This document shows, in pieces, positions 4,208 to 37,024 of a stretch of DNA of 63,020 bases (the stretch's first letter is position 1; each line of letters opens with the position of its first letter). The notes beneath the pieces are model-generated. The model worked only from the letters and a program-made list of their open reading frames with translations, was not told the DNA's origin and did no database searches. Source of the stretch: Gammaproteobacteria bacterium (GTDB taxonomy: Bacteria > Pseudomonadota > Gammaproteobacteria > DSM-19610). The stretch spans positions 1-63,020 of the forward strand of contig JAPHQV010000001.1 in assembly GCA_026197075.1 (NCBI GenBank). The letters run 5' to 3'. A program made the position numbers and the translations under genes.

Positions 4208-4219
4208 CGTCCCCCCCCC

Positions 4220-4287
4220 TGTAGGAGCGGCCTTCGGCCGCGAACGCTGGTGGCACACCGGTTCGCGGCCAGAGGCCGTTCCTACAG
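4220..4287. repeat. Paired REP palindrome, GTAGGAGCGGCC family
   Basis: Inverted arms CTGTAGGAGCGGCC... and ...GGCCGTTCCTACAG enclose GGCCGCGAACG and GTTCGCGGCC. Related pairs lie at 7828-7900 and 49837-49901. The right arm runs into the thioredoxin gene and supplies its stop codon. Confidence 0.85.
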
Positions 4288-4632
4288 GCGCGCGTGTTTG
4301 GTAATAAAGTCGATCACGAACTGGAAGGACTGGGCGCTGCTGAAGCGACCCTGTACCTCACCGTCCTGGAACAGCAGGATGGTGGGGAAGCCGCGCACCT
4401 GGTGCCGGCCGGCGATCTTCATGTTATCCCCTTCGTCCACTTCCACCTTGGCCAGGGCCACGGCGCCGTCATGGTGCTGGATCACCTTGTCCAGCACCGG
4501 CGCCAGCGCCAGGCAGGGCGGGCACCAGTCGGCCCACAGGTCCACCAGGATGGGGCGCTGGCGCGAGGCCTCGATGACCTTCGCGTCGAAGTCTTCCAGG
4601 TTTACGTCGAAGATGTGCGGACTTGTGCTCAT
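4282..4632 (-). CDS. Thioredoxin-domain protein with a WCPPC active site
   Basis: A 116-residue cytoplasmic thioredoxin-fold protein without signal peptide. The redox motif is [18 protein letters not shown] near residues 33-50, so the usual WCGPC is replaced by WCPPC, which would change redox potential or partner choice. The cis-proline segment GFPTILLF is present at about residues 80-87. The closest general description is a thioredoxin or the N-terminal half of the YbbN co-chaperone, but the long YbbN C-terminal part is absent. The stop codon lies inside the REP palindrome at 4220-4287. tRNA-Pro is just upstream on the same strand. Confidence 0.85.
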
Positions 4633-6657: not shown

Positions 6658-7825
<1,168 letters not shown>

Positions 7826-7827
7826 TA

Positions 7828-7900
7828 CCTGCAGGAGCGGGCTCTGCCCGCGAATTGGCGAACCTCAAAACCCTTCGCGGGCAGAGCCCGCTCCTGCAGG
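7828..7900. repeat. REP pair with perfect 27-base arms
   Basis: Arms 7828-7854 and 7874-7900 are perfect reverse complements (outer CCTGCAGGAGCGGGCTC, inner GCCCGCGAA) around a 19-base loop, immediately after obgE. It belongs to the GTAGGAGCGG family. It lacks a T tract, so it may act as an mRNA-stabilising end more than a terminator. Confidence 0.88.
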
Positions 7901-7951: not shown

Positions 7952-8075
7952 CGGTATCTTGCCAGTCTTTACATACCACACCACACATCCATGAAAAACC
8001 GCCAGCAACTCGGAGCCAGCAAGCGCTGGGTGATCAAGGTCGGCAGCGCCCTGGTGACGGCCAACGGCCGTGGCC
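7952..8075 (+). repeat. Left copy of a 124-base direct repeat (proB 5' region)
   Basis: Matches 17380-17503 at 121 of 124 positions. It covers 39 bases upstream of the proB ATG and the first 28 codons. The identity starts and ends sharply, at C7952 and C8075, and marks the left border of the inserted segment. Confidence 0.97.
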
Positions 8076-8128
8076 AGGCGGTACTGACTGGTACTCGATA
8101 CCATCGATCTCAGATATCCCAAAATTGA
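7991..8128 (+). pseudogene. proB: Truncated proB (first 28 codons) at the island's left border
   Basis: The reading frame begins [18 protein letters not shown] exactly as the complete proB at 17419, runs to codon 28, then enters foreign sequence (QAVLTGTRYHRSQ...) and stops at 8126-8128. It would make a 45-residue peptide from the original obgE-side context. It lacks almost all of glutamate 5-kinase and cannot be active. The intact gene lies on the other side of the island. Confidence 0.95.
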
Positions 8129-8329: not shown

Positions 8330-9337
8330 ATGCAGGGACTGCATGGGCTGCAGGAATGCGGGGGCATTCGCGCGCCGATAACTAAGCGTAGTCTTTTTTT
8401 GCGCTCACGTTGCTGTTTATCTGCCATCTGTCCATTTTGCTGGCCATACCATCCATGGCCAGTGGGACGGAAATTCCGGCGGGCGACCTTGCTCCGCTCG
8501 ACAATCCTGACGGCGAGCTCAATGTCGCCGATTTTCTCATTCTTCAAAAATTTGTTCTGGGCACGTTGATCCCGACGCCGGAACAGCTCCTTATTGCCGA
8601 TGTAGCACCTCTCGGGAATCCAGACGGCGAACTGAATGCGGGTGATATGGTTGTGCTTATGCGGGCTATCCATGGCCTTGTTAGCCTGCCACCGATACAG
8701 ATCGGCCCGAACGCGCCGGTACTGACCGTTGCAAATGGGACTACTGATCAGAACCCCTATTTCTTGACGGGTGAATCAGATCCTGGCCAGGAAATCCGCA
8801 TTTACCTCAATGGTGAACCATTCGCGTCAACAGGGTCATCCGTCCTTGATGGCACCTTTGGTGTGCAACTTATTTTGGAAGATGGCGCTAACAGCATCTA
8901 TGCAGTTGTCGTTGATTCGGGGGTCGAAGGACCGCCGTCAGACATGGTTGCATTGGAGTATGAGAATAACGTTCCCCGCGATCAGGATGGCCTGATCGAT
9001 ACAAATTCTGTTTGGACACCTGGAACATCGAACGAACCGTATGTGATTGGTGCCGGCGTGACGGTGGCTCCTGATACGACGCTCACATTAATGCCGGGTA
9101 AGGTATTGAGTTTTGGAGCTGGTGCTTCACTGGTAGTCGAAGGCACCTTGGAGGTGAAAGGTACAGCATCTAATCCAGTCAGGTTTACATCCGGCTCCAT
9201 ATGGCCAGCCAGGGGGGATTGGGAAGGGATAAATGTAAAACCAGATAGTGGCGGCGCCGTGATTGATGGTGCGATTATCGAGTATGCAAGAAACGGGATA
9301 AGTGGAGAGTTCCTTCGAAAAAGTGGACACCCATTGG

Positions 9338-10147
9338 TTAGGAAAACGCACGCTCGAACTCCATTGGCGACTGGTAACCCAGCGACGAATGTAGCCGTAC
9401 GCGATTATAAAAATCGATATAGGACCTGACTGCATCACGTAACGACTTGTCACTTTCAAATGTCTGCCGGTGGTACATGTCCGATTTCATCGATTTATTC
9501 CATGATTCCATGTGGGCATTATCCGTCATGCGACGTGGGCGATTCATGCTCTGGGTGAGTCCCGCCTTCCGCAGGGAACTTTTCATGACGGACGCCAGGT
9601 ACTCTACACCTCGATCACTATGAAACAGCGTCCCCTCTTGTGGTCGGCGCAGCTTTAGCGCGTGCCGTAATGCCCGTCGTGTTAGTGTGGCTGTCTTCTC
9701 CTGCCCCAGCGCCCACCCCAGCAGTCGCCGCGAACAGCGGTCCATCACCGTGGCAAGATACCGCCATTGCCCGCTGACTTTCAAATAGGTTACGTCCGCG
9801 ACCCAGACTTGATCTGGCCGGGTCACTTCGATCTTGTGCACCCGATTCTCCACGCTGGTGAAGAATCGGCCCAGGCCAGGCATGCGACGGTACAAGGTTG
9901 CCGAGCAGGCGCGGATGCCGTTTTCCCGCATCAATCGCTCAATTCTGCGCCGTCCCACTGATTCTCCCGCCCGATCCAGGACTGCATGGATGCGAGGGCT
10001 GCCATAGGTCTCCCGGCTCGCCTTGTGCGCCCTCCGGATGGTCTTTACCAGGCGTTCATCTTCTACTGCACGCTCGCTTGGCGGTCTACCGAGCCATGCA
10101 TAATAGCCACTCGGACTCACGCTATAGAGCTTGCACATCAGCCTCAC
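9338..10147 (-). CDS. IS3-family transposase OrfB (DDE catalytic part)
   Basis: 269 residues with the HTH_21 region ([29 protein letters not shown]) and an rve integrase core. The DDE triad is visible as VADVTYLK (first D), HSDRGVEY (second D) and [14 protein letters not shown] (E). The frame is open upstream of its ATG into the orfA region ([17 protein letters not shown]), so the active protein is normally an OrfAB fusion made by -1 frameshifting near 10191-10196, where the minus strand reads AGAAAAG. Confidence 0.93.
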
Positions 10148-10500
10148 CGGGAAGGACTCCTGGTGCGCTTTGATAAATGCGAAGATGTCTCTTTTCTGGC
10201 GGAAGTGAACTCGATGGCTTTTTTTAAAATTTCATGCTCAATTTTCAGGCGCTCGTAGTCGCGCTTCATGCGGCGCAGCGCTTTGAGCTCGGCAGCAACG
10301 TCCTTATCCACTTCGACACCCTTGGTCATGATCATCCCCTCGCGCGCTTCTTTTCGCCAACGAGACAACATAAACGGGTGGATGTAAAGTGCTTCGGCAA
10401 CATCCTGCACGGCAACCCCACCCAATTGACTCAACCGTACTGCTGTTGCCTTGAATTCTTCACTGTACTTATAGGTTGTTCTTGGTCCTGGCTTTGGCAT
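10144..10500 (-). CDS. IS3-family transposase OrfA (HTH and leucine zipper)
   Basis: 118 residues: an N-terminal helix-turn-helix ([20 protein letters not shown], then LSRWRKEA) and a C-terminal coiled coil ([22 protein letters not shown]), as in IS3-family OrfA. The ATG at 10500 follows AGGAG; a GTG at 10509 is less likely. It overlaps OrfB by 4 bases. Confidence 0.92.
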
Positions 10501-13500
10501 TTTAGACACTCCTGGCTAGTTAGCTCAGGGTGTCCACTAAACCGTAGGAACTATCGTGTCGATACATCGCAGCTTGTTATAAAAAACTGCCATATAAGCA
10601 ATTTTGGTGCGAACTTTACCGAACATGGGGTTGGTTTTTTTAACGGTGCAGGAGGAGTCGTCGAGAACTGCGTGATCGATAATCAAGCAAGCTCTGGAAA
10701 TAATTGGTCGAGAGGGATTTATGTTGCGAATTCATCAGCTCCTGAAATCAGAGAGAACCATATAAAAAATACCGGAATCGGTATTGTTATATGGAACTCT
10801 TCCCCGTGGGTTGTCGGCAACTTGGTCGAGAGAAATGTAACGGGTATTTATTCGTATGGGGATTCAAGCGCACTTATCAATGGCCAGAATGTCATAACCG
10901 AAAATAGTCAGGCGGGGCTGGAGTTTGGCGCGGTTGATGGTGGCGTGAGTCCAAATTGCATTGTTAAGAATAACAATATTTTTAATAACAAATGGAATGT
11001 GATGACAGACGATTATGATAGGGCGATTGAGCTCGAAGTCGATGTTTCCGGGAACTGGTGGGGGGCGGCCTCTCCTTCAGTAGTATCTTCTGGGATATTC
11101 GATTTTAAAGTTATCCAGGAGGCTTCTCCGCCAGTGAAGGTCGTGCCATTCCTGGATGCGCCGAACGGCAATCCTGTGCAGGGAAATTTTCTTAATGGTC
11201 GGGTAGATCAAGATACAACGCTATTGGCAGGTGAAGCATACACAGTAGTGGGGTCGTATGTAATCATTCCGAATACAAAGCTTACGGTTCAACCAGGCGC
11301 GAGGCTGGAATTTTCAAGCACCGCATTGCTTTATTCAATGGGTGATATTGATGTGGTAGGGACGGAAGGTTACGAGGCCACATTCATAACCGCCGGCCAC
11401 GCGGGCGATCTTCCTGTTGGAGGTGGCGTGGTCATTTCAGGTGTTGCTGAAGCTGCTATCGAGTGGGCACATTTCGAGAATTTGAATTGGGGGCTGTATA
11501 TTTTGGCATCAGAAGTTGTTGTCAAAAATAGTAAGTTTTCCAATAATCAGCGCGCTTCCATATCGGCAAGTAACTCCAATGTTTCCATCATCGATAATAT
11601 ATTCGAAAGAAGCGGGCGTGAATTTTGTGACTATGGTTGTATAGGTGTGGACTTGTACGGTAGCGGAAATGTTTCGATAGAAAGAAATAATTTTAGTGGT
11701 GGAAATGTTGGGATATTTGTAAGTAACGGTAGCCCTGAGATAAAGGAAAACACGATTACTGGTAACAACTATGGAATTTCTCTTGACGAAAGCGGTTACG
11801 CATCTTGGACGAGTCCAGTTATAACGAATGGAAATGTAATCGCAAACAATGATTATGGGGTGTACTCGAATAATATTACCCGTGGATCGGTTTCGGTAAA
11901 TGGCAATAATATTCATGGGAATGGATTCAATTATTACAAGACGAGATCAAGTCATGTCGAGGATGCCACTAACAACTGGTGGGGGTCTGCAATCGAGTCT
12001 GAGATTGCGGGCACCATTTACACTCAACACGCGGGAGCCGTGGCCTACGTACCATTCTTAGCGGGCCCGGCTCCAATCGCGCCACAGCTTTCTTCGGGCG
12101 CTCAATATACCGCTGAAAGTGCTTTTTCGGTTACGGGTTCGGCCCAACCCGGAATTCAAGTAAGGTTGTATGTAAACGGCGTGGAGCATCTGGTTGTAGT
12201 GGCAGACCAGGGCGGCGCGTTCAGCGGAACCGTGGCCTTGGACGAAGGTGAGAACCATATCCATGCGGAAGCCTTTAATCAAACCACGGTAAGCAGCGCT
12301 TCCAATTCCATTTCGGTCATCCTGGATACCATTCCACCCAGCATCTCGATCGCACGACCTTTCAACGGCGATCGTCTCAATGCCAACCCGATATTTTCCG
12401 GCACTGTGAGCGAGCCAGTATTTCTGACGATTGCGGGTGAGTCGGTGCTGGTGTCGGTAACCAATGAATTTACCCATGGGCCTGTCAGGTTAAGCGAAGG
12501 CCTTAATTCCATACCCATTATTGCAGAGGATATTGCCGGGAACGTCACATTACAGACTATTGATCTGGTAATGGATACCACACCACCAGAGAATCCGGAT
12601 ATGAACCTGGTGGTCTTTGGTCCTTTGCTGGGTGGTGTCGTAAACGTCACGGGCGGCGCCGGCGCGGTGGAAGCAGGAGTTCAGGTGTACGTGGCAAATT
12701 CGCGCACCGGAGTGGTAAGTATGGTGGTGTCGAATGGCGATGGAGGGTTCTCGGCTGTTATCGACGCGCAACCTGGTGACGCGCTGACACTGACGGTCGC
12801 CGATGATCTGGGGAATCAGGCCATCTGGAACCATGAAATCATAGAAGGTGTACCAGCCGCATTATCCATAAGCAATGTTAGTCCTATAAATGGTTCCGCG
12901 ATTAATGGCGACCGGGTAACGATTTCCGGTGAATTCGATGGGCCAGAAGGCCTTGGCATCGTCGTTGCCGGTCAGTCTGCCGATCTTTACGGTAACCGGT
13001 TTGTCGCTAGTGATGTTCTGTTGTCAACCGGATTGAATTCGATAGAAATCACGGCATCAAGCCCCGACGGACAAGTTTATACCCATGATCTAACGCTAAC
13101 GAGTAGCGGTGAAATACCCTTCAAGGTAAGTGTTTCGCCGGAAAGTGGATTGCTGCCATACATTGGAGAATTGATTGTAACCAATGAGACCGGTCAGCCA
13201 ATGCAGTCGGTGGAAATCGATATCGATAACGATGGAGTATTCGATGGAAGCTTTTTCAATCTGAATTATTCAGAAGCGTCGTGGGATATTTGGTATGGAA
13301 CACCCGGTTTGCATATTGGCCGTGTACGGATAGTCGATTATGCTGGTGTTTCCCATGAGCTATCGTATGGCCTCATGGTGGAAGAGTTGGTGGGTAAGCA
13401 ATCCAGATTGCAAATGGTATACCGAAACATGATGAGCAATCTTGCCTCGGGAAACATAGAGGGAGCCTCGGCGCGTATCGCGGGAACATCACGAGAGCGT

Positions 13501-13747
13501 TATGACGAGATATTTACCATGCTCGGAAGTGACCTTGGGGCGATTGCTCAGGATTTTGGTGAAATTAGAAATATAGTTCTCGGCGATGGTTGGGCAGAGT
13601 TGCTGCTGGTTCGTGAATCAGGTGGAGTTAAAACGGCTTATCGAATCAATCTGTTCCAAGGTGAGGATGGAGTGTGGCGAATTGAAAGCATGTGATCTCG
13701 GTCAGCATGGCACGATTTCACGTGTATGAGCTGGAAATATTTTATGA

Positions 13748-13785
13748 AAGGAAATGGCAGATTATTCGAATCGGGGGTTCATCAG
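13748..13785 (+). repeat. 38-base repeat copied from the downstream hydrolase gene
   Basis: The segment matches 15430-15467 at 34 of 38 positions (shared core GATTATTCGAATCGGGGGTT). It lies just before the lipoprotein start and lengthens that open frame artificially, which argues for the later start at 13804. Confidence 0.85.
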
Positions 13786-13803
13786 GAAAATGGTGATAAA
13801 GAC

Positions 13804-14436
13804 ATGACGAGGCAGCGATATGCGATTCTGATTGCCGTATTGGCGTGGGTCTTGGTTTTGCTGTCGGCTAGTTGCGCTTTGGCCCCGCCACGTGAAGTTC
13901 CACCGCAGACAGGGCGCGTGTTGGATGTGGAAACCCAGCAGCCGATCGAAGGCGCGATTGTTGTATTGCGCTGGCAGGGTGTGGGGACCAAGGCATTCGT
14001 CGATACACAAACGGTCTGTTATCACGTCGAATCGGCGGTGACGGATACGGAGGGGCGCTATAAGACAGACGGATGGCGGGAAGCGCCAATATATCGGGAT
14101 CTGAGTATGAAGCAGGTCCTGCATACTGTCTATAAGCCAGGCTACCGGCATGTGCGGACGGATATAGCGACAGGTGATCAGTATCTGGAGAAGGATGCAA
14201 GAAGTGTGAAAGAACGGTTGGAGTATTTGATATCCACCTCTGTAAGTTGTAGTGCCGTGGAAGACAAAAAACTGTCAAACCTGTATCGAAGCCTGTACTC
14301 AGAAGCAGAAAGTGTTGCGACAACAAAGGAAGAAGTGGCGATTGCGCTAATATTGCTAATCGAAGTCGAGAAACAAGAGGTCGGATCAACTGAGGCGTGG
14401 CGTCGTTTTGAGCAAAGGAAGCTCGAATTGAGGTGA
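13804..14436 (+). CDS. Predicted lipoprotein with a carboxypeptidase-regulatory-like domain
   Basis: About 210 residues. The N-terminus is a lipoprotein-type signal (MTRQRYAILIAVLAWVLVLL then SASC), with the cysteine as probable lipid site, though the residue three before it is atypical. After it comes TGRVLDVETQQPIEGAIVVL, the start of a CarboxypepD_reg (Ig-like, transthyretin-type) fold, and a helical, lysine/glutamate-rich C-terminus. The frame is open from 13726, but that part is a copied repeat, and ATG 13804 fits the signal peptide. It is followed 6 bases later by the hydrolase gene, so the two are probably cotranscribed. Function unknown. Confidence 0.72.
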   Translation: MTRQRYAILIAVLAWVLVLLSASCALAPPREVPPQTGRVLDVETQQPIEGAIVVLRWQGVGTKAFVDTQTVCYHVESAVTDTEGRYKTDGWREAPIYRDLSMKQVLHTVYKPGYRHVRTDIATGDQYLEKDARSVKERLEYLISTSVSCSAVEDKKLSNLYRSLYSEAESVATTKEEVAIALILLIEVEKQEVGSTEAWRRFEQRKLELR

Positions 14437-14442
14437 TATGAG

Positions 14443-16785
14443 ATGAGTAAAAAGAGCGTTCTGTTTGTTGCGTTGATTTTGTCTGTTCCAGGATATGGAT
14501 ATGAGCTGGCGACGCATGCTCGCTTAACAAATGCAGCCTACTTACGCTCTGTTCTAACTTTAGATGAGACCTTCATGTTTGGGCTCGGTATTCAAGCTCA
14601 TGGGGATGTCTTTGGTGAGGATTATTTCGATATTTATCGTGGTGATATCTATACGCGTTCTAAAAATGATTTTGAAGAGACGTCCAAACGTATGCCGGCT
14701 GGAATAAATCCACTTTCTATTACAGGTTGGCTCATGCGCGGTGCGATCCGCGAGGATGACCATATTGGGCGTCGTGCGCCCAACCCGCAGGATGATCCCT
14801 ATAACAATAATGACCTGATTCTCGATAACCGCCCGCTGCATCACTTCTATGATCCGCGCAATGATCGCGGGCTCCAGGTGGGGCTACGCATCGGCCAGAA
14901 GGCGCCGGACTGGGCTGTTGGCGCCACAAACGTTTTTGTGGACTCCAACCATGCCAACGAGTGGCGCCGTAATCACTTCACGGTTTTCGATGCTCGCGAA
15001 GCGATGTTCCGGGCATTGACCGGCATGGACCGCAATGGTAGTCCCGCAATCGGAGCAGGTGGAAGTACGCCGGTCACGGCCGAGGATAAACTGGCGGTTC
15101 GAAAGGCATACTGGGCCACGACCTTTCGGGCGTTGGGCGATCTGGTGCACATGGTTCAGGACATGGCGCAGCCGCAACACACACGAAATGACCCCCATGC
15201 GGGTAGTGACGACTATTCACAACAGGCCGGACCGGCGGGGCACAAGAGTTTCTATGAGATCTATATTGATCAGCGGGCAAAACAGTCTGAAATCACGGAA
15301 GCTAATGGCCATAGCTATATGCCCGATTCGCTGGTGTATGACACGAATCCATCGTACCCGATCCCGCAGTTCAATAGCTATGTGGAGTATTTCAGTACGC
15401 AGCATTTGCAGTCCAATGTGATGGTCCGGAAGGGGATGGCGGATTATTCGAATCGGGGGTTCTTCAGTGTGGGCAAGAATCTGTGGCAACAGGAGTATGA
15501 CCAGCCACCCACGAGTATCAGTGGAGGATTCTATTCGCCGGATCCCCGTGAGGTCGGCAATGATGGAACAAAGGTCGCCATTCTGTCGGGCGAGGTTCAT
15601 GACGCGTATTTGGGGGTGGCGGAGCAGAATGTGCCGCTGACCGCATTCGGTGCGTGGAATGATGCCATTCAACAAAAAACAGGAATGGATGCCCCCATCT
15701 TGATTCGGGAAAACTACGACGCCATGGCGGATTTGCTGGTCCCCCGGGCGGTGGCCTACTCAGCCGGACTGATCGATCATTTCTTTCGGGGGCGGATGGA
15801 AATCACGCTGCCGGAAGATGGTGTGTTTTCGGTCCTGGATCATGCGGTGGAAAATGGTCTTGAAGATGGGTTCAGGAAGATAAAGCTCAGGCTGCGTAAT
15901 ACCACGCCCACGATCAATGATGGCCAGAATAGTTATCCACATCATATGACCGGAGGTGCCCTGTTGGCCGTGGCAAAGTTTCATCGCAATGGCTGCTATC
16001 AGCCTGATTTTCTCGGTGAGCCAGGTGTGGCTGACTGCAATTATATGGCGACCTATGGGGCTGAAGAAATCTCCGTATCACAACCAATCGAGATTCCATA
16101 CCTGGATGTGGACCAGGCGCAAGAGTTTGTTTTCGATTTTTCCACCACCCCGATACCTGTTAATGCGACCAGTGTTGTGCTGCAAGTCGTTTATCGTGGG
16201 GAGTTGGGTCCCGAGAGCGATGCCGTGGTGGTTGCTAGCCGGGAGATCTCCGCGCCTACCACATTTTTGTTTATGAATTCGACGGATTACTTCATGTTGG
16301 ATGGTGTTTTTTATAGACCGAATGAAATATTGAACGACCCAGTGTTGTTTCAGCGTATCGACCTAAATGGAAATGGAATATATGATCCCGAGGCTGAAGT
16401 TAATGCTGACATCAATATAGACCCAGAAGTCACCGTATATACCTTTAATTTCGGTTCCCAGGAAGTGGGGAATGCGGAGCTCCCGCCTGCCTCGTTTCTA
16501 CGGTTTTCTGTGTTGTCTGATCTGCCGACTATAAGGATCAATGTTCGTGCCCAGGAGCATGGATCAGCAATCTGGTCGGTATTCGATAGGGATATGGAAA
16601 TCCGGAAGTATGATCCGTCAATACAGGATTTCATCTGGACTGCATATACCACGGTTCGAGGGGCCAGCGCCTTTCATCGTGTCAGCCGGTATAGAAAAAC
16701 AGGGAGTTCTGGAACGGAGCAGGACGCAAGCGTTTTGGATGATATTGAGAATACAGCACCAGTGGAGATTATCCTTAATTTTTAG
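14443..16785 (+). CDS. Secreted zinc phospholipase C / P1-nuclease-like protein
   Basis: 780 residues with a signal peptide (MSKKSVLFVALILSVPGYG). The mature protein has the pattern of the zinc-dependent phospholipase C/S1-P1 nuclease fold: an early His (His25 in YELATHARLTN), His133-His134 (RPLHHFYDP), and above all LVHMVQDMAQPQH, where H236-x3-D240-x5-H246 equals the HFIGDMTQPLH zinc motif of P1 nuclease. The C-terminal half, from about residue 450, looks beta-rich and may bind substrate or surface; a calcium-like loop DLNGNGIYDPEAE is near residue 645. Substrate (phospholipid or nucleic acid) cannot be told. The ribosome site is GAGGTGAT. AT-rich codon use marks it as acquired. Confidence 0.7.
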   Translation: MSKKSVLFVALILSVPGYGYELATHARLTNAAYLRSVLTLDETFMFGLGIQAHGDVFGEDYFDIYRGDIYTRSKNDFEETSKRMPAGINPLSITGWLMRGAIREDDHIGRRAPNPQDDPYNNNDLILDNRPLHHFYDPRNDRGLQVGLRIGQKAPDWAVGATNVFVDSNHANEWRRNHFTVFDAREAMFRALTGMDRNGSPAIGAGGSTPVTAEDKLAVRKAYWATTFRALGDLVHMVQDMAQPQHTRNDPHAGSDDYSQQAGPAGHKSFYEIYIDQRAKQSEITEANGHSYMPDSLVYDTNPSYPIPQFNSYVEYFSTQHLQSNVMVRKGMADYSNRGFFSVGKNLWQQEYDQPPTSISGGFYSPDPREVGNDGTKVAILSGEVHDAYLGVAEQNVPLTAFGAWNDAIQQKTGMDAPILIRENYDAMADLLVPRAVAYSAGLIDHFFRGRMEITLPEDGVFSVLDHAVENGLEDGFRKIKLRLRNTTPTINDGQNSYPHHMTGGALLAVAKFHRNGCYQPDFLGEPGVADCNYMATYGAEEISVSQPIEIPYLDVDQAQEFVFDFSTTPIPVNATSVVLQVVYRGELGPESDAVVVASREISAPTTFLFMNSTDYFMLDGVFYRPNEILNDPVLFQRIDLNGNGIYDPEAEVNADINIDPEVTVYTFNFGSQEVGNAELPPASFLRFSVLSDLPTIRINVRAQEHGSAIWSVFDRDMEIRKYDPSIQDFIWTAYTTVRGASAFHRVSRYRKTGSSGTEQDASVLDDIENTAPVEIILNF

Positions 16786-16796
16786 GGGCGTTGAAA

Positions 16797-17339
16797 ATGA
16801 TGCTGAAATTTCTTTTGACGGGGTCTCGAAGGTTCGTGCTTGTTATGGCCCTGCTTGTGGCGTGCCCATCTCATGGTCAACCCGATAGCATGCAGGAGTC
16901 GGAATCGGTGCTTGCATTGCGTACAGCCCTGCACAATCTACATGCGGCAGTTCGGCACGGCGATGCGCGGGCTGTCGAGCATGAGCTGGCTGGAGGGGTG
17001 GACCTAAATCAAAGCGCTGCCCTCGAATTGGCGATTCTGATGGGCCATGGCGATATTGTGGATCTTCTGATTGCACGCGGCGCTGACGTCAATCGTCCAG
17101 GCCTCAGTGGCAATCTGCCGATTGGGCTTGCGGTGCGGCGCGGCCAGACGGAATTGGTGCGGCGACTCATTGACCAGGGGGCGGATATCAATCTGCGTGA
17201 TCGACGCGGGCAAATCGCCATGGATCATGCGCGGAAAGCCGGGCGTGCCGAGATGATACAGCTTCTGCAGGGGGGCGATTCGCAGGTGCACCACGAGGGA
17301 GTGGGTTCGGGGAGAGGTGCCTGGATTCGGAGGGATTGA
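16797..17339 (+). CDS. Exported ankyrin-repeat protein, probable lipoprotein
   Basis: 180 residues: an N-terminal signal with LVAC lipobox (residues 16-26 region, ending ACPSHGQ), then three ankyrin repeats ([40 protein letters not shown] and [19 protein letters not shown]). ATG 16797 follows AGGGG; a TTG at 16791 is possible. It begins 11 bases after the hydrolase stop. Ankyrin lipoproteins next to secreted hydrolases can be immunity or inhibitor proteins; that role is only inferred here. It ends 40 bases before the right repeat. Confidence 0.82.
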
Positions 17340-17379: not shown

Positions 17380-17503
17380 CGGTATCTTGCCAGTCTTTAC
17401 ATACCACACCGCACATCCATGAAAAACCGCCAGCAACTCGGAGCCAGCAAGCGCTGGGTGATCAAGGTCGGCAGCGCCCTGGTGACGGCCAATGGCCGCG
17501 GCC
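17380..17503 (+). repeat. Right copy of the 124-base direct repeat (intact proB start)
   Basis: Partner of 7952-8075, with three substitutions. This copy is joined to the rest of proB, so the island replaced the original upstream region of proB but kept 39 bases of leader. Any proB transcription must now start within the island or in these 39 bases. Confidence 0.97.
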
Positions 17504-18543
17504 TGGATCGCGAGGCCTTCGGTGCCTGGGTGCGGCAGATCGCGGCCCTGCGCGCCGCCGGCAAGGAAGTGGTGCTGGTGTCTTCCGGCGCGGTGGCGGA
17601 AGGCATGAGCCGGCTCGGCTGGACCCGGCGGCCCCACGCGGTCAATGAACTGCAGGCGGCCGCGGCGGTGGGACAGATGGGCCTGATCCAGGCCTATGAA
17701 TCCCGCTTCCAGGAGCATGGCCTGCACACGGCGCAGATCCTGCTCACCCACGAGGACCTGGCCGACCGCGAACGCTATCTCAACGCCCGCAGCACCCTGC
17801 GTTCCCTGCTGGCGCTCGGCGTCATCCCGGTGGTGAACGAGAACGACACCGTGGCCACCGACGAGATCCGCTTCGGTGACAACGACACCCTGGCGGCCCT
17901 GGTGGCCAACCTGGTGGAGGCGGACCTGCTCGTAATCCTCACCGACCAGGAGGGCATGTACGAAGAGGATCCGCGCGCCAACCCCGAAGCCACCTTCATC
18001 TCCGAGGCCCAGGCCGGTGATCCGCGCCTGCTGGGCATGGCCTCCGGTACGGGCGGTGCCCTGGGGCGCGGCGGCATGGCCACCAAGGTGCAGGCGGCGG
18101 CGCGCGCGGCCCGTTCCGGCACCGCCACCCTGATCGCCCATGGGCGCGGCGAGGACGTGTTGAACGCCATTGCCGCGGGCGGCGAGCTCGGCACCCTGTT
18201 CCATCCGCCCACCAGCCCCATGGCGGCGCGCAAGCGCTGGCTGGCGGGACATCTGCAGGCGCGTGGCCGGCTGGTGCTGGATGCGGGTGCGGTGCGGGTG
18301 CTGCGCGAATCGGGGCGCAGCCTGCTGCCGGTGGGGGTGGCGCGGGTGGAAGGCACCTTCCAGCGCGGCGAGCTGGTGATCTGCCAGGCCGATGACGGTA
18401 CGGAAGTGGCGCGCGGCCTGGTGAATTACAGCGCCGAGGAGGCGCGCCGCATCATCGGCAAGCCCAGCGACCAGATCGAGGCACTGCTGGGGTACGTGGA
18501 CGAGCCGGAGCTGATCCATCGTGACAACCTGGTGCTCAGTTGA
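17419..18543 (+). CDS. proB: Glutamate 5-kinase
   Basis: Phosphorylates glutamate, the first step of proline synthesis. 374 residues: the amino-acid kinase domain ([62 protein letters not shown]) occupies about residues 10-255. A PUA domain follows (about 280-360: [29 protein letters not shown]). It is complete and normal, with its start in the right-hand direct repeat. Its usual partner obgE is 9.6 kb upstream, beyond the island. Confidence 0.97.
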
Positions 18544-32740: not shown

Positions 32741-32816
<76 letters not shown>

Positions 32817-33123
32817 TAAATCAAATACTTATAACTACAAAGATGTATCGCCTTTTCGTGTAGACGGAATGCAGACAATCGGCAGCATAGGCGTTCCCAT
32901 GAGTTTTCCTCATGTAATAGATGATGGTGGCGATACAATGCTCAGGATTCCATCTGGGCTGATTGCTTGGACACCAAAATGCTTTGGCGACCCCTAGAAA
33001 TTGTACAGATTCTGTTCCCTGATGTTCAAAAGGCTGGACAAATCATCGCGCGAAGGTTATGACTTCATGGAGTCAATAATCTTTCGTTGCAAGTCATCAT
33101 CCCTGAATAGATAAAAGTAAAAA
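32817..33123. other. Non-coding leader of the tRNA-Thr island
   Basis: 307 AT-rich bases between tRNA-Thr and the first island gene. A 32-codon open frame (32899-32997, MSFPHVIDDGGDTML...) has no ribosome site and no known relative. TGTATCGCC (32842 region) and GGCGATACA (32930 region) are inverted copies. The operon promoter should be in the 3' half, but no clear -35/-10 pair stands out. Confidence 0.5.
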
Positions 33124-33762
33124 ATGGATCTGATCGAACACGACGCAAGCATCGTATTGGTGGGTTCGTTAAACCCAGCTATTTTCCATCCGGAATGGCT
33201 AGCGAAACTAGATTTGATTTCTGCGCGAGATCTTGAGGGTGCAGAGGTGAATGTGGTGCATCCTGAGGTTTCGCTGTTTGATCTTCAGTGGGCGCGGTTT
33301 GATGTTCGGCAAGATCGTTTGATTGTTCGCAGCAATGATCCCGCTTATTTTTCACCTTTAAGGGATCTGGTTATTGGTATATTTTCATTTTTAGAGCACA
33401 CCCCAGTTACCGCTATGGGGATAAACTCAATTATTAAGTATGTAGTCCAGGATGAGGAAAACTGGCACACAGTCGGCCACACACTTGCTCCCAAAGAAAT
33501 CTGGAAAAATTACCTTTCTGGCCATATCGGCATGACGCGTTTGAGCATGAAGAGTGGGCGTAGTGATGATTTGCGAGGTAGTGTGAATGTCACAATTTCT
33601 CCGCTTATGGACAGAAATGGAATCGTTTTTGATTTGAATAATCACATTGTCCTTGAGTCTACGACGGAGATTCGTGAAATTCTTTCTGACCATTGGGAAA
33701 ATCTGCAGAAGGATGCGCTCGTGATTTCTAGGGGTCTATTGAAGGATGCTGGTGCGTTATGA
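33124..33762 (+). CDS. Unknown protein, first gene of the island operon
   Basis: 212 residues, soluble, no signal peptide or transmembrane segment. It starts MDLIEHDASIVLVGSLNPAI and has alternating beta/alpha structure with FSFLEHTPVTAMGINSIIKYV near residue 90. The pattern 'N-P-A-I-F-x-P-x-W' early and 'T-P-V-x-A-x-G-I-N' later recalls sporadically distributed defence-island proteins of the TIGR04255 type, but I cannot confirm membership. No catalytic motif is seen. Its stop overlaps the next start (ATGA), showing coupled translation. Its AT-rich codon use suggests transfer. Confidence 0.72.
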   Translation: MDLIEHDASIVLVGSLNPAIFHPEWLAKLDLISARDLEGAEVNVVHPEVSLFDLQWARFDVRQDRLIVRSNDPAYFSPLRDLVIGIFSFLEHTPVTAMGINSIIKYVVQDEENWHTVGHTLAPKEIWKNYLSGHIGMTRLSMKSGRSDDLRGSVNVTISPLMDRNGIVFDLNNHIVLESTTEIREILSDHWENLQKDALVISRGLLKDAGAL

Positions 33763-34295
33763 AATCAACAGAAATCAACCTAGAGTATTCGTCATCTACT
33801 GCGGCTAAAGATTTGCGTTTTTTGTCGCGGCAGCCATTCATAAAGAAATGGCATGCTGGAAATAGTTCGATCGATGTAAGTATTCGCGAAGGAAGTGCTG
33901 ATTCGGTTTTCGAGATTGAGGCAAAAACTCATCTGATATCGACGCCGTTGGGGAAATTAACGGGTAGCTTTCAGATGCTTCAGTTGTGGGAGGGGTATGT
34001 CGTATCTGTCTCCGATGAAGAGATGCTTTGTCGGATTTTTGATAAAACTAATGAAGAAAATCCTGTGGAAGAGGTTTCAATTCCACTAAAAGAAGTAGAG
34101 CCGGCTGAACTTCCTCTCGTGTACGCAGGTTCTGTTTTTTACTGGTCTATACGGTATGCAGATCAGCGTGGTCGTGGTAGGGCTCGCGAATCTCTTATTC
34201 GTTTTCGCCGACTACCGCCGATTAGCGTAACAAGTATAGAAAAATCGAAAGCACGGGCAAATTATCTTGAACAATTCTTTAGCGAAGCCAAATGA
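33759..34295 (+). CDS. Unknown beta-rich protein, second gene of the island operon
   Basis: 178 residues. The middle (LWEGYVVSVSDEEMLCRIFD, about residues 76-95) and end (YAGSVFYWSIRYADQRGR, then SLIRFRRLPPIS) look like a small beta-barrel, possibly SH3-like, and may bind a partner or nucleic acid. It overlaps the first gene by 4 bases and the third by 29, so the three are made together. No known family assigned. Confidence 0.72.
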   Translation: MKSTEINLEYSSSTAAKDLRFLSRQPFIKKWHAGNSSIDVSIREGSADSVFEIEAKTHLISTPLGKLTGSFQMLQLWEGYVVSVSDEEMLCRIFDKTNEENPVEEVSIPLKEVEPAELPLVYAGSVFYWSIRYADQRGRGRARESLIRFRRLPPISVTSIEKSKARANYLEQFFSEAK

Positions 34296-35391
34296 TGTTC
34301 CTCCTCTTGATCAGTTGGAAGTGTCTCTGTTTGGTCCCGGTGTAGGTGAATGTATTGTTATACATATTGGGAACGGTGAATGGGTCATTGTAGATTCATG
34401 CAAGGATTCTTCCGGTTCGCCAATTGCGCTTTCGTACCTTTCTTCCCTTGGCGTCGACCCTGCTTGCGCAGTTAAGTTTATAATTGTTAGCCATTGGCAT
34501 GATGATCATATCAAGGGTTTGGCTGAAACCGTGCGTGTCTGTGAAGGCGCAAGGGTTGTGTTTTCAGCTGCACTTATGAAAACAGAATTCTTGACTCTGG
34601 TAGATGTTATTAATACCCCGGATGCTCTGATCGATAGAGGTGTGTCTGGTCTTAATGAAATGGATTATGTGGTTAAGCAGTTGCATCGACGGATATTAAA
34701 AAATGGTGGGGGAAAAAATTCCAGTTTATATCTTACGCCAGCAACTGCAGATAAGCGGCTATATATATCCCATGATGTTGAGCTTTGGTGCCTATCACCG
34801 TCTGACGGTGATTTTGTAAATGCATTGAGTGAATTTGGATCGTTGACTAATCAGCTTTCTTCAAGGTATCGGGGCGTCATCCCATCCCCTACATCTAATC
34901 GGAATGCCGTTGCTCTTTGGGTAACTTTTGGGGAGATAGATATTTTACTTGGCGCGGATCTGGAGAATTCTCCACACCCCGATTTTGGGTGGTCTGCTAT
35001 TGTGAATTCTTCAGGTAGACCGAGACGTAAAGCGGCGATATTTAAAGTGCCACATCACGGCTCAAAAACGGCGCATAATGACGATGTAGTTGAGAATGTG
35101 TTATCTGATTCCCCAATATCCATGTTGACGACGTTTAATCGAGGAATAACGCCTATTCCAACGCAGGACGATGTTGATCGAATAAAGGCGTATTCGATGA
35201 ATACATTTTTGACTACCCCGCCTAAGGGGAAAAAACCCAGAAGGGATAGTGTGGTCGAAAAAATGATGAAGCAAGTAGTTACATCGCGAAATGTTATCAG
35301 CGGTGGTGCGGTTGGTCATGTTAGGGTTCGTGTTACCAAGACTGGGCATCCACAGGTTAGATTGGACGGTCCGGCAGTCTCTATTCCATAA
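34267..35391 (+). CDS. MBL-fold metallohydrolase, ComEC-like class
   Basis: 374 residues of the metallo-beta-lactamase fold. Metal ligands are visible: H76-x-H78-x-D80-H81 in SHWHDDHIKG, the aspartate D231 in LLGADLENS, and H263-H264 in VPHHGSKTAHN. The HHGS form is typical of the ComEC/Rec2 C-terminal nuclease-like domains, which suggests DNA or nucleotide hydrolysis. No transmembrane part is present, so it is not ComEC itself. It probably starts at TTG 34267, inside the preceding gene; the conserved part begins at LEVSLFGPGVGECIVIHIG. It is the only recognisable enzyme of the operon and so its likely effector. Confidence 0.85.
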   Translation: MNNSLAKPNDVPPLDQLEVSLFGPGVGECIVIHIGNGEWVIVDSCKDSSGSPIALSYLSSLGVDPACAVKFIIVSHWHDDHIKGLAETVRVCEGARVVFSAALMKTEFLTLVDVINTPDALIDRGVSGLNEMDYVVKQLHRRILKNGGGKNSSLYLTPATADKRLYISHDVELWCLSPSDGDFVNALSEFGSLTNQLSSRYRGVIPSPTSNRNAVALWVTFGEIDILLGADLENSPHPDFGWSAIVNSSGRPRRKAAIFKVPHHGSKTAHNDDVVENVLSDSPISMLTTFNRGITPIPTQDDVDRIKAYSMNTFLTTPPKGKKPRRDSVVEKMMKQVVTSRNVISGGAVGHVRVRVTKTGHPQVRLDGPAVSIP

Positions 35392-35401
35392 TGGATGGAT
35401 T

Positions 35402-35447
35402 AAGGGGTCAGTGGATCAATGGATCAAGGTGGATCAAGGGGTCAGAA
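35402..35447. repeat. Short degenerate repeat after the island operon
   Basis: Three imperfect copies of GGATCAA (GGATCAAT, GGATCAAGGT, GGATCAAGGG) lie between two AAGGGGTCAG units. It is too short and irregular for a CRISPR. The rest of the 243-base gap to the XRE gene holds nothing I can name. Confidence 0.6.
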
Positions 35448-35634
35448 TGCTTGAAATCGAGCACTTGAACTCCATCTGGATCCTCAATACTGGCTCCTCT
35501 GCTTTCCATTTAGTTCGCAAAAGGATTTGCGACATATCTTGATTCGCCATTTAGAGAAGTTTTCCCATTGCGGAGATCGGTGCGGCAAGCTATTCAAGAA
35601 GGTTTCAAGTGCTCTGCCTCCTTGACCGTGCAGA

Positions 35635-36594
35635 CTAGGGCGTGTCCAGTTCCTCTTCCGCACTCTCCATCGCCCCTTCATTGTACATGTGCTTGGGGAC
35701 CCAAATGTATTGGATCTCGGGTTTTCTGATCATCACTGTCCGATGATAGCCTTCAACGGGGAGATAGATCACATCGTCTATGTCATCTGGGTCGGTTTCG
35801 ATGAGAGAGAACGCTTCAAAGACGACACTGCTTTCTACAGCGCTTTCGCAACGCACCTTGCCCGATGATAGCTGCCAAGAAATACTTGTAGCACGGTCGA
35901 AAAATTTCTGTGTTTTCTCGGCAGCTTCTTTCTTCACTTTCTCGCGGTCTTCCGCTGAAATATCTCCTGACGCAACGAGCTTGTCCAAATCCTCAGCGGT
36001 CAGACAGACTTGGCGCAGAACTTCGTCGATTCTTGCCTCGTCTACTTCTTCCTCCAGACTGTCAGGAAAATTCATGTGTTCGACGATCTGCCAGAAATCA
36101 TCATCTGGCAGCACACCCATATGGTCTGTGTACTCCTCTGGCCCATAGGTGTCGTACGCCTCGCTCGAGAAGTAGACGTCCGTGACGGCTTCTCGGCGAA
36201 TATACACTAGTCGATTGTCTAACGATTCGGCGATGATGAATGCACTTTCGCTTTGAAACTGGTGATGCAAACTTGATCGCACCTCTTCTGATATCGGTAA
36301 GAGCAGCGCCCCTCCCGATGCAAAGTGGATCGCCGTCTCCCCAAAGTATTTCCGTGCGTCGCCCACATTGTCATCGATCCCGAGCAGGTCAAATGCAGGT
36401 TTTTTTCCCAAAATTTCATCAGCCGTTGTCTTCAGTATCCGAGCAAGTTTCTTCACCTTGGCGCTTGGAATTGGCGCAGACCCAGATTCCCAGCGCTGAT
36501 AGTTGGGTTGGCTGACACCCATTGCTTCAGCCACTTCAGCTTGGGTCATTCCCGCCCCCAGCCGTTTCCTTTTTAACGTCGATCGAGTCTTCAT
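35635..36594 (-). CDS. XRE-family regulator with a long acidic C-terminal domain
   Basis: 319 residues. An HTH_XRE domain fills about residues 5-58 (MTQAEVAEAMGVSQPNYQRW, then LARILKTTADEIL). The C-terminal 250 residues are acidic and partly helical (EEEVDEARIDEVLRQVCLTA) and belong to no family I recognise; they could sense a signal or bind a partner, as in two-domain repressors. ATG 36594 follows GGGG and starts just before the HTH. It is convergent with the three-gene operon and the last gene before attR. The promoter holds a matching operator, so it probably represses itself. Confidence 0.85.
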   Translation of the reverse strand: MKTRSTLKRKRLGAGMTQAEVAEAMGVSQPNYQRWESGSAPIPSAKVKKLARILKTTADEILGKKPAFDLLGIDDNVGDARKYFGETAIHFASGGALLLPISEEVRSSLHHQFQSESAFIIAESLDNRLVYIRREAVTDVYFSSEAYDTYGPEEYTDHMGVLPDDDFWQIVEHMNFPDSLEEEVDEARIDEVLRQVCLTAEDLDKLVASGDISAEDREKVKKEAAEKTQKFFDRATSISWQLSSGKVRCESAVESSVVFEAFSLIETDPDDIDDVIYLPVEGYHRTVMIRKPEIQYIWVPKHMYNEGAMESAEEELDTP

Positions 36595-36621
36595 CCTGTT
36601 TCCCCTGCTTGCGATATACGT

Positions 36622-36650
36622 ATAATATATACTCAACTGTATATTGTCAA
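36622..36650 (-). promoter_or_regulatory. Promoter of the XRE gene with built-in operator
   Basis: On the minus strand, TTGACA (36650-36645) and TATTAT (36627-36622) are separated by exactly 17 bases, a near-consensus sigma-70 promoter. The spacer and -10 edge contain a perfect inverted repeat, ATATAC-TCAACT-GTATAT (36627-36644), the right form and place for binding by the XRE protein encoded just downstream. Confidence 0.82.
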
Positions 36651-36676
36651 TGTGCAGGCGGTAGCATCCAACCGTC

Positions 36677-36708
36677 GTAGGTCGAGATTGATTCCTCTCT
36701 CCGGCACC
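36677..36708 (+). repeat. attR-like copy of the tRNA-Thr 3' end
   Basis: GTAGGTCGAGATT followed by GATTCCTCTCTCCGGCACC, the second 19 bases identical to the tRNA-Thr 3' end at 32797-32815. It marks the right end of the island. No complete tRNA surrounds it. Confidence 0.88.
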
Positions 36709-36712
36709 GTTC

Positions 36713-37024
36713 TTATCGATCCTTCCCCGTGCCCGCTGGTTTGCGGGGCGCCGTTCTGGAGAGTGCCGCGACCATGCGCGTCTGCCAGCCGGGACCACTG
36801 GCCTTCCAGCGCGCCAGGACCTCGGGCGGGATACGCAGGCTGATGGATACCTTGGCCTCCGGTGACCTGGGGCGACCGCGCGGCTTCAAAAACTGTTCCG
36901 CTATTTCCTTGCCAAGGATTTCCGGCAAGACCTCCCGTGCGGGACGGGCGCGCGCAAAGTCTTCGTCCGTCAACTCGGGGTTTTCGTCATCAATCAGTTC
37001 CGGGTCGGGCTTTTTCCGTTTCAT
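36713..37024 (-). CDS. brnA: BrnA family antitoxin
   Basis: 103 residues. The BrnA signature fills the C-terminal half: RGRPRSPEAKVSISLRIPPE, then VLARWKASGPGWQTRMVAAL, an atypical ribbon-helix-helix. The N-terminus is acidic (PELIDDENPELTDEDFARA), the part that normally wraps the BrnT toxin. It lies 5 bases outside attR. The toxin gene upstream is only a fragment, so the antitoxin is orphaned, as at 20861. Confidence 0.88.
   Translation of the reverse strand: MKRKKPDPELIDDENPELTDEDFARARPAREVLPEILGKEIAEQFLKPRGRPRSPEAKVSISLRIPPEVLARWKASGPGWQTRMVAALSRTAPRKPAGTGKDR

What the first reader, a model, noticed from the sequence alone, without database searches (positions are those of the whole stretch)
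14443..17339. Secreted zinc hydrolase next to an ankyrin lipoprotein: possible effector-immunity pair
The 780-residue protein has the H-x3-D-x5-H core of zinc phospholipase C/P1 nuclease (LVHMVQDMAQPQH), a signal peptide and a long C-terminal beta part. The ankyrin protein follows 11 bases after its stop, exported and probably lipid-anchored. Genes for a secreted enzyme and a small envelope ankyrin protein, together on an island, suggest enzyme plus inhibitor or immunity factor. The substrate is unknown.
Basis: partly seen in the sequence, partly recalled or inferred. Interest (0 to 1): 0.66.

Follow-up and report, generated by a model that had tools for sequence, protein, structure and literature searches.

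The report
Three-gene operon with alpha-toxin-like hydrolase
The window carries an exported zinc enzyme with the fold of Clostridium alpha-toxin; its regular partner is not the ankyrin protein next to it but a small variable envelope protein encoded just upstream, in a widespread three-gene operon for which I found no description and which looks like a secreted enzyme with its own antidotes.

Summary
Window 14443-16785 encodes a 780-aa Sec-exported protein whose predicted structure (pTM 0.87) matches zinc phospholipase C (C. absonum and C. perfringens alpha-toxin, Z 17.6 and 17.0; first unrelated match 3.8). Its candidate zinc ligands are conserved in 46 relatives, except that the usual H-x3-E histidine is missing and an invariant H252 stands near E272. 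No Pfam or NCBIfam model matches. The ankyrin ORF starts 11 bp downstream and is exported, but its lipobox is absent from its two relatives.

The pairing is only partly right. The ankyrin gene adjoins the enzyme in 3 of 82 full-length loci. The regular partners lie upstream: a small transthyretin/CnaB-like envelope protein ('B'; 58 of 67 loci, usually overlapping) and a large modular surface protein ('A'; 53 of 55). In 17 loci B genes, or B plus a truncated 5' enzyme gene, are repeated. Several repeats are mosaics: B's helical C-terminus and the enzyme's first ~105 residues vary between near-identical flanks, as in immunity-gene arrays. The island is mobile-looking (127-bp direct repeat, absent from relatives); an IS3 element breaks A here. 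Best guess: a secreted lipid or phosphodiester hydrolase, B as self-protection, the ankyrin as accessory. Substrate and B's role are inferred.

The parts
7952..8078 (.). left copy of a 127-bp direct repeat (5' end of proB and its upstream region)
   Evidence: 96.9% identical to 17380-17506
8410..9309 (+). gene A, 5' piece: signal peptide, dockerin-like and Ig-like parts of a modular surface protein, cut off by the IS
   Evidence: ORF and Pfam Dockerin_1 (E 8.5e-4, below cut-off); homologous to L036 gene A
9309..10551 (-). IS3-type element (HTH_Tnp_1 and rve transposase ORFs, imperfect terminal inverted repeats) inserted in gene A
   Evidence: Pfam, sequence
10552..13695 (+). gene A, 3' piece: right-handed beta-helix, glucodextranase-B/Ig domains and the family's conserved C-terminal region
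   Evidence: Pfam; C-terminal region found in 66 ORFs of the loci studied, at the extreme C-end in all but one
13726..14436 (+). gene B: small exported lipoprotein-like protein, transthyretin/CnaB-like beta-sandwich plus helical C-terminus (likely start at 13804)
   Evidence: upstream of the enzyme gene in 58 of 67 loci; AlphaFold2 pLDDT 90; CarboxypepD_reg below cut-off
14443..16785 (+). gene C: 780-aa exported zinc phospholipase C/P1-nuclease-fold hydrolase with beta-sandwich C-terminus
   Evidence: AlphaFold2 pTM 0.87, Z 17.6 to alpha-toxin 1olp, conserved ligands
14500..14517 (+). predicted mature N-terminus Y20 and ligand candidate H25 (spacing +5)
   Evidence: Y/F in 43 of 46, H in 44 of 46; model residue 20 aligned to residue 1 of mature alpha-toxin
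14755..14844 (+). ligand candidates D105 and H134 (GAIREDD ... HFYDP)
   Evidence: 45 of 46 each
15148..15180 (+). core motif H236-x3-D240-x5-H246
   Evidence: 46, 45 and 46 of 46
15196..15258 (+). H252 and E272, invariant, in place of the usual H-x3-E pair
   Evidence: 46 of 46 each; alignment to PlcB 8cqm puts K268 opposite the usual His
16797..17339 (+). exported ankyrin protein, lineage-specific accessory gene
   Evidence: Pfam Ank; 46% identical to the ankyrin downstream of the Thiogranum homologue; 3 of 82 loci
17380..17506 (.). right copy of the 127-bp direct repeat; proB starts at 17419

Best explanation
Genes A-B-C (8410-16785) form a mobile operon. C is a Sec-exported zinc hydrolase of the phospholipase C/P1 nuclease fold, probably released through the type II secretion system, and its most likely substrate is membrane phospholipid. 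A is a modular surface or extracellular protein that shares only its C-terminal region with its relatives. B is a small envelope-anchored protein whose variable helical end recognises the variable N-terminal region of C and protects the producer, i.e. it acts as an immunity or inhibitor protein; extra B genes with truncated C remnants are retained copies. The downstream ankyrin protein is an accessory, recruited in this lineage, that most likely binds C in the periplasm as a second inhibitor or a folding/activation partner. Shown by computation: fold, ligand conservation, operon conservation, arrays, mosaics, purifying selection on extra B copies, mobility. Inferred: substrate, secretion route, that B or the ankyrin binds C, and that the outcome is protection. 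In this genome gene A is broken by an IS3 element.
For: Fold: pTM 0.87 and Z 17.6 to 1olp and 17.0 to 1ca1, with residue 20 of the model on residue 1 of alpha-toxin; first unrelated row Z 3.8. Profile hit to Listeria PlcB 8cqm, weak (E 0.013), through the motif. Ligand candidates conserved in 46 relatives. Operon: B upstream of C in 58 of 67 loci, overlapping in 48 of those 58 and by exactly 4 bp in 26; A-family gene upstream in 53 of 55. Of 95 genomes, 10 of 10 with C also have B, while B occurs without C in two. Arrays in 17 loci. Mosaics: in L110, B residues ~51-180 are 96-100% identical, B residues 181-236 33-44%, the start of C 24-66%, then C from about residue 100 is 100% again; L097, L122, L074, L036 and L155 behave similarly. 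dS jumps between the halves (L110 0.02 to 1.48; L097 0.28 to 1.06; L124 0.22 to 0.88; L122 0.19 to 0.63) while dN/dS stays below 1, so the tails were exchanged by recombination and the extra copies are maintained. Such arrays with remnants are the signature of retained immunity genes (PMC5361080; polyimmunity loci, PMC3482391). Own genome: type II secretion GspD present, no T6SS VipA. Ankyrin: same place and a short gap in three loci (11 and 27 bp), and a separate exported ankyrin protein inside the operon of L116.
Against: No activity, toxicity or binding has been tested. Tandem duplication from upstream of B into the 5' part of C would by itself leave intact B genes and truncated C genes, so arrays alone do not prove immunity; only the mosaics and retained purifying selection go further. 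Across independent loci the divergence of B's C-terminus is not specifically tied to C residues 20-105 (partial r 0.25, against 0.28 for residues 281-380; the constant half of B gives 0.24). Nine of 67 loci show no recognisable B. Hosts are environmental bacteria where a scavenging enzyme is also plausible.
Confidence: 0.45

Rival explanations
1. C is a secreted scavenging enzyme (lipid or nucleic-acid phosphorus, necromass); A attaches the complex to a surface and B is a chaperone, foldase or envelope anchor. No conflict is involved.
For: Hosts are environmental sulfur oxidisers, nitrite oxidisers and soil bacteria; all three proteins are exported; A carries adhesin-type domains; no known immunity domain in B; B lies upstream of C, as a chaperone or anchor might.
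Against: Recombined tails in B, tandem B copies under purifying selection and loci with three or four B genes are not expected of a simple chaperone.
Confidence: 0.25
2. One reading: the ankyrin protein is the cognate antidote of C, as in the Tle6/Tli ankyrin lipoprotein pairs, and B does something else.
For: Short-gap neighbour in the window and in two Thiogranum loci that lie next to an integrase rather than proB; exported; a separate exported ankyrin protein in the operon of L116; precedent PMC11470151, PMC10294624.
Against: Absent beside 79 of 82 full-length relatives, so it cannot be the general antidote; lipobox not conserved; Tle6 is a serine lipase delivered by a T6SS, which this genome lacks.
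Confidence: 0.15
3. B (with A) is an adaptor that carries or displays C, in the way the transthyretin-fold tip of VgrG1 binds the N-terminal extension of phospholipase Tle1; co-exchange of B's tail with the N-terminal part of C then keeps docking partners matched.
For: B's core is transthyretin/CnaB-like; B's tail and C's N-terminus are exchanged as one block in arrays; precedent for such docking in PMC9860674.
Against: Several B genes per single full-length C gene fit an adaptor less well; the family-wide test does not single out this pair of regions.
Confidence: 0.15

Closest known systems
Zinc phospholipase C family (C. perfringens/C. absonum alpha-toxin, Listeria PlcB, B. cereus PLC; Pfam Zn_dep_PLC)
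   Same: all-helical catalytic fold starting at an aromatic mature N-terminus, H-x3-D-x5-H core, GA..ED and HFY.P motifs, and a beta-sandwich after the catalytic domain in the region aligned with alpha-toxin
   Different: no Pfam hit; larger; usual H-x3-E histidine absent with invariant H252 instead; N-terminal spacing aromatic+5 His; extra C-terminal beta part; belongs to an A-B-C operon
S1/P1 nuclease family
   Same: same superfamily fold; aromatic N-terminus and His at +5, as recalled for P1 (W1, H6)
   Different: no Pfam match; not among the structure matches reported; last ligand pair differs
Het-C toxin domain of polymorphic toxin systems (PMC3482391)
   Same: predicted member of the same PLC/P1 fold used in conflict systems
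   Different: no Het-C Pfam match; here the enzyme is a separate Sec-exported protein, not a toxin tip of a PVC or T6 system
Tle6-Tli of Enterobacter cloacae (PMC11470151, PMC10294624)
   Same: phospholipase paired with an exported ankyrin-repeat protein
   Different: Tle6 is a serine lipase delivered by T6SS and invariably has the ankyrin partner; here a zinc-fold enzyme, no T6SS, ankyrin in 3 of 82 loci
Orphan immunity-gene arrays (V. cholerae T6SS, PMC5361080) and polyimmunity loci (PMC3482391)
   Same: tandem small genes retained beside effector remnants, mosaic by recombination
   Different: the variable block lies in B's C-terminus plus the N-terminal part of the enzyme, and the copies lie upstream, not downstream

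Membership tests
Zinc phospholipase C / P1 nuclease superfamily (fold level) | all-helical catalytic fold | tested here: met
   AlphaFold2 pTM 0.87 and Z 17.6/17.0 to 1olp/1ca1, next unrelated 3.8
Zinc phospholipase C / P1 nuclease superfamily (fold level) | N-terminal aromatic, His, Asp, His, H-x3-D-x5-H ligands | tested here: met
   Y/F20, H25, D105, H134, H236, D240, H246 conserved in 43-46 of 46
Zinc phospholipase C / P1 nuclease superfamily (fold level) | final H-x3-E/D ligand pair | tested here: not met
   E272 invariant but position 268 is K/P/other; H252 invariant and may replace it. Distances in the model could not be measured. The fold-level claim is kept; the claim of an unchanged ligand set is not
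Pfam Zn_dep_PLC or S1-P1 nuclease (sequence family) | match over the curated cut-off | tested here: not met
   no family for P0001 at E<=1, none of these for 16 members at E<=0.1
Pfam Zn_dep_PLC or S1-P1 nuclease (sequence family) | hydrolysis of phospholipid or nucleic acid with zinc | not testable with these tools
   needs enzyme assay
Tle6/Tli effector-immunity pair | serine lipase catalytic triad in the effector | tested here: not met
   fold is zinc PLC
Tle6/Tli effector-immunity pair | T6SS in the genome | tested here: not met
   no PF05591 match in the 99.7% complete genome
Tle6/Tli effector-immunity pair | ankyrin partner always present | tested here: not met
   3 of 82 loci
Polymorphic toxin / immunity-array system | conserved part plus exchanged variable part, by recombination | tested here: met
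   mosaics and dS jumps in arrays
Polymorphic toxin / immunity-array system | tandem extra immunity-like genes with effector remnants | tested here: met
   17 loci with arrays; truncated C copies of 92-438 aa
Polymorphic toxin / immunity-array system | toxin neutralised by the small protein | not testable with these tools
   needs co-expression and binding assays
Bacterial lipoprotein (ankyrin protein) | conserved lipobox Cys | tested here: not met
   LVAC in the window protein only; absent in L053 and L054

The most novel reading that the evidence does not exclude
A previously undescribed, Sec/type II-secreted conflict system found in several bacterial phyla: a modular surface protein, a zinc phospholipase-fold toxin and a small envelope immunity protein, in which specificity is renewed by recombining one cassette that spans the immunity protein's C-terminal helices and the toxin's N-terminal ~100 residues (not its C-terminus), while older immunity genes accumulate in arrays; ankyrin proteins are recruited as extra regulators in some lineages.
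Probability: 0.3. Interest if true: 0.75.

Novelty: new variant of a known kind. Interest (0 to 1): 0.56.

Why it matters
A family of exported hydrolases with the alpha-toxin fold, without any Pfam or NCBIfam match for the window's member, is spread through environmental Beta- and Gammaproteobacteria and Rokubacteria, with single genomes labelled Nitrospirae and other phyla. It travels with two other exported proteins in an operon for which I found no description. If the small B proteins are antidotes, this is a secretion-dependent toxin/immunity system that does not need a contact-dependent injection machine, and its arrays record how specificity is exchanged. It would also give a function to large sets of unannotated genes.

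Tried and rejected
T6SS delivery: no VipA/TssB in the own genome. Phage origin: no match in phages and no relative in IMG/VR by close search; one plasmid carries a broken relative. Known defence system: no PADLOC model for A, B or C; ankyrin-only hits. Ankyrin as universal partner: rejected by neighbourhood counts. B as a fast-evolving gene under positive selection: dN/dS below 1, rejected in favour of recombination. Family-wide co-variation of B's tail with C residues 20-105: not specific, inconclusive. Structural identity of B beyond a transthyretin/CnaB-like core: Foldseek hits are local, TM about 0.25. P1 nucleases did not appear among the structure matches reported, which does not exclude them. 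Zinc-site geometry could not be measured because model coordinates are not readable here, and a complex could not be folded. Literature: seven searches completed; none turned up a description of the A-B-C operon.

Full report
WHAT IS IN THE WINDOW. ORF 14443-16785 (+) encodes 780 residues with the stated LVHMVQDMAQPQH motif. An exported ankyrin protein starts 11 bp after its stop, at 16797. Two more genes lie upstream on the same strand: B, 13726-14436, ending 6 bp before the enzyme gene; and A, 8410-13695, a beta-helix/Ig-type surface protein whose reading frame is split by an IS3-type element at about 9309-10551. All of this sits in a low-GC stretch (45-55% against about 65%) between obgE (6803-7825) and proB (17419-18543). 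A 127-bp direct repeat of the proB 5' region (96.9% identical) lies at 7952-8078 and 17380-17506. In five genomes of the same family obgE and proB are adjacent; in the same-genus genome G001 the island is also absent, although proB there lacks its first 85 codons in the assembly. So this is an insertion. The genome holds one copy of the enzyme and one of B.

THE ENZYME. No Pfam or NCBIfam family matches it, nor (for Pfam) does a phospholipase or nuclease family match any of 15 relatives. An alignment of 46 sequences keeps an aromatic residue at 20 (Y/F, the predicted mature N-terminus), H25, E104-D105, H134, H236, D240, H246, H252 and E272. AlphaFold2 with that alignment gives pLDDT 83 and pTM 0.87. 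Among 994 Foldseek candidates re-aligned by VIA-align, only the Clostridium alpha-toxins stand out: Z 17.6 (1olp, 217 aligned, 2.9 A) and 17.0 (1ca1), then a drop to 3.8. Model residue 20 falls on residue 1 of mature alpha-toxin, so the N-terminal ligand position is kept. The aligned range reaches model residue 591-593 and alpha-toxin residue 349-350, so the first C-terminal beta-sandwich (about 452-602) probably corresponds to alpha-toxin's membrane-binding domain; this is inference from the ranges. A profile search finds Listeria PlcB weakly (E 0.013) and places K268 opposite the histidine of PlcB's H-x3-E pair. The invariant H252 may take that role. Fold-level membership of the zinc PLC/P1 superfamily is therefore met; membership of the Pfam families is not, and substrate is open. 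That phospholipid is the likelier substrate is inference from the closest fold.

THE PARTNERS. A scan of GTDB genomes with the alignment gave 80 loci, from Thiogranum and Thiohalobacter MAGs to Burkholderiales, Nitrotoga, Dokdonella, Methylocaldum and Rokubacteria, with single or few MAGs labelled Nitrospirae, Deltaproteobacteria and Thermoanaerobaculia. Some titles are surely misbinned names (a 'Klebsiella' and a 'Bordetella' MAG) and I draw nothing from them. Counting loci with enough sequence: B lies within 2.5 kb upstream of a full-length enzyme gene in 58 of 67, overlapping it in 48 and by exactly 4 bp in 26; an A-family gene lies upstream in 53 of 55. A shares only its C-terminal region, nearly always at the extreme end, while its N-terminal part varies (beta-helix, NHL, PKD, Big_7 and other domains). 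Of 95 genomes, the ten with the enzyme all have B, and two have B only, one of them possibly because of contig ends. The enzyme's own tail falls into two main types of 36 and 33 members. The ankyrin gene is beside the enzyme in the window and in two Thiogranum MAGs (46% identical over 147 residues to the one compared; gaps 11 and 27 bp), and in those two the module is followed by a tyrosine recombinase gene. L116 carries a different exported ankyrin protein between two B genes. So ankyrin proteins seem to have been taken up by this operon at least twice, but they are accessories. L053 keeps only a fragment resembling B before its enzyme gene; L054 starts at a contig end, and another contig of the same MAG (L155) carries A followed by four B genes at its end, which may be the missing upstream part (inference).

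ARRAYS AND MOSAICS. Seventeen loci have repeated B genes or B plus a 5' fragment of the enzyme gene. Example L124: B-C'(337)-B-C'(334)-B-C(831). Comparing repeats within a locus shows a constant-variable-constant pattern. In L110, nucleotide identity runs at 95-100% through B's beta-sandwich half, falls to about 50% over B's helical C-terminus and the start of the enzyme, and returns to 100%. By residue, the variable block covers B from about 160-180 to its end and the enzyme from its signal peptide to about residue 105; L097, L122, L074 and L036 agree, and L155 shows the B part twice. Not every array does: L114, L091 and L066 repeats are diverged throughout. Synonymous divergence jumps with the block (0.02 to 1.48 in L110), so the blocks were exchanged by recombination; dN/dS below 1 in all comparisons means the extra B copies are kept functional. 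Across independent loci I could not show that B's tail follows enzyme residues 20-105 more than other parts, so the co-variation rests on the arrays.

INTERPRETATION. Arrays of small genes beside effector remnants are the known mark of retained immunity genes (V. cholerae T6SS arrays, PMC5361080; polyimmunity loci, PMC3482391). Lipoprotein antidotes of phospholipases are well documented (Tli1, Tli3: PMC9860674), and one group of antidotes is made of ankyrin repeats (Tle6/Tli: PMC11470151, PMC10294624). The PLC/P1 fold has been proposed in toxins as the Het-C domain (PMC3482391). On these grounds I take B as the most likely antidote and the ankyrin protein as a lineage-specific second factor. 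The main caution is that tandem duplication by itself leaves intact B genes and truncated enzyme genes, so retention alone is weak evidence. The own genome has a type II secretion secretin and no T6SS VipA, which points to release into the medium rather than injection; that too is inference.

VERDICT. The unit is a mobile, widespread A-B-C operon for which I found no description. In this genome it may not be fully working, since A is broken.

Noticed in passing
window 33000-36800: Second low-GC stretch just after tRNA-Thr (32741-32816): two small genes without Pfam hits, a metallo-beta-lactamase-fold protein similar to defence-associated MBL models (RTasMBL, LmuA; E about 1e-9 to 1e-8) and an HTH regulator; looks like a defence-type island.
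   Followed up: partly
window 9309-10551: IS3-type element with imperfect inverted repeats (GTTCCT..GTGGACACCC) interrupting gene A, so the operon's first protein is not made whole in this genome.
   Followed up: yes
window 7828-7900 and 4215-4292: Short palindromic dispersed repeat, about 80-90% identical copies near obgE and elsewhere, also in the same-genus genome G001; REP-like, not studied.
   Followed up: no
L149 (G001:C215) 7367-7543: In the same-genus genome the island is absent but proB lacks its first 85 codons, with the left repeat region joined to codon 86; assembly fault or scar of a lost island.
   Followed up: partly
window 10552-13695 and relatives: Conserved C-terminal region of gene A, without Pfam match in its last 190 residues, at the very end of otherwise unrelated modular surface proteins; a candidate sorting or docking domain.
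   Followed up: partly
L116 7561-9207: A 549-aa exported ankyrin protein with a further C-terminal domain sits inside the operon between two B genes, unlike the window's ankyrin gene in size and place.
   Followed up: partly
L033 8400-10184 (Pseudolysobacter antarcticus plasmid NZ_CP035703.1): A plasmid-borne copy of the enzyme gene broken into several ORFs; shows the gene also reaches plasmids.
   Followed up: no
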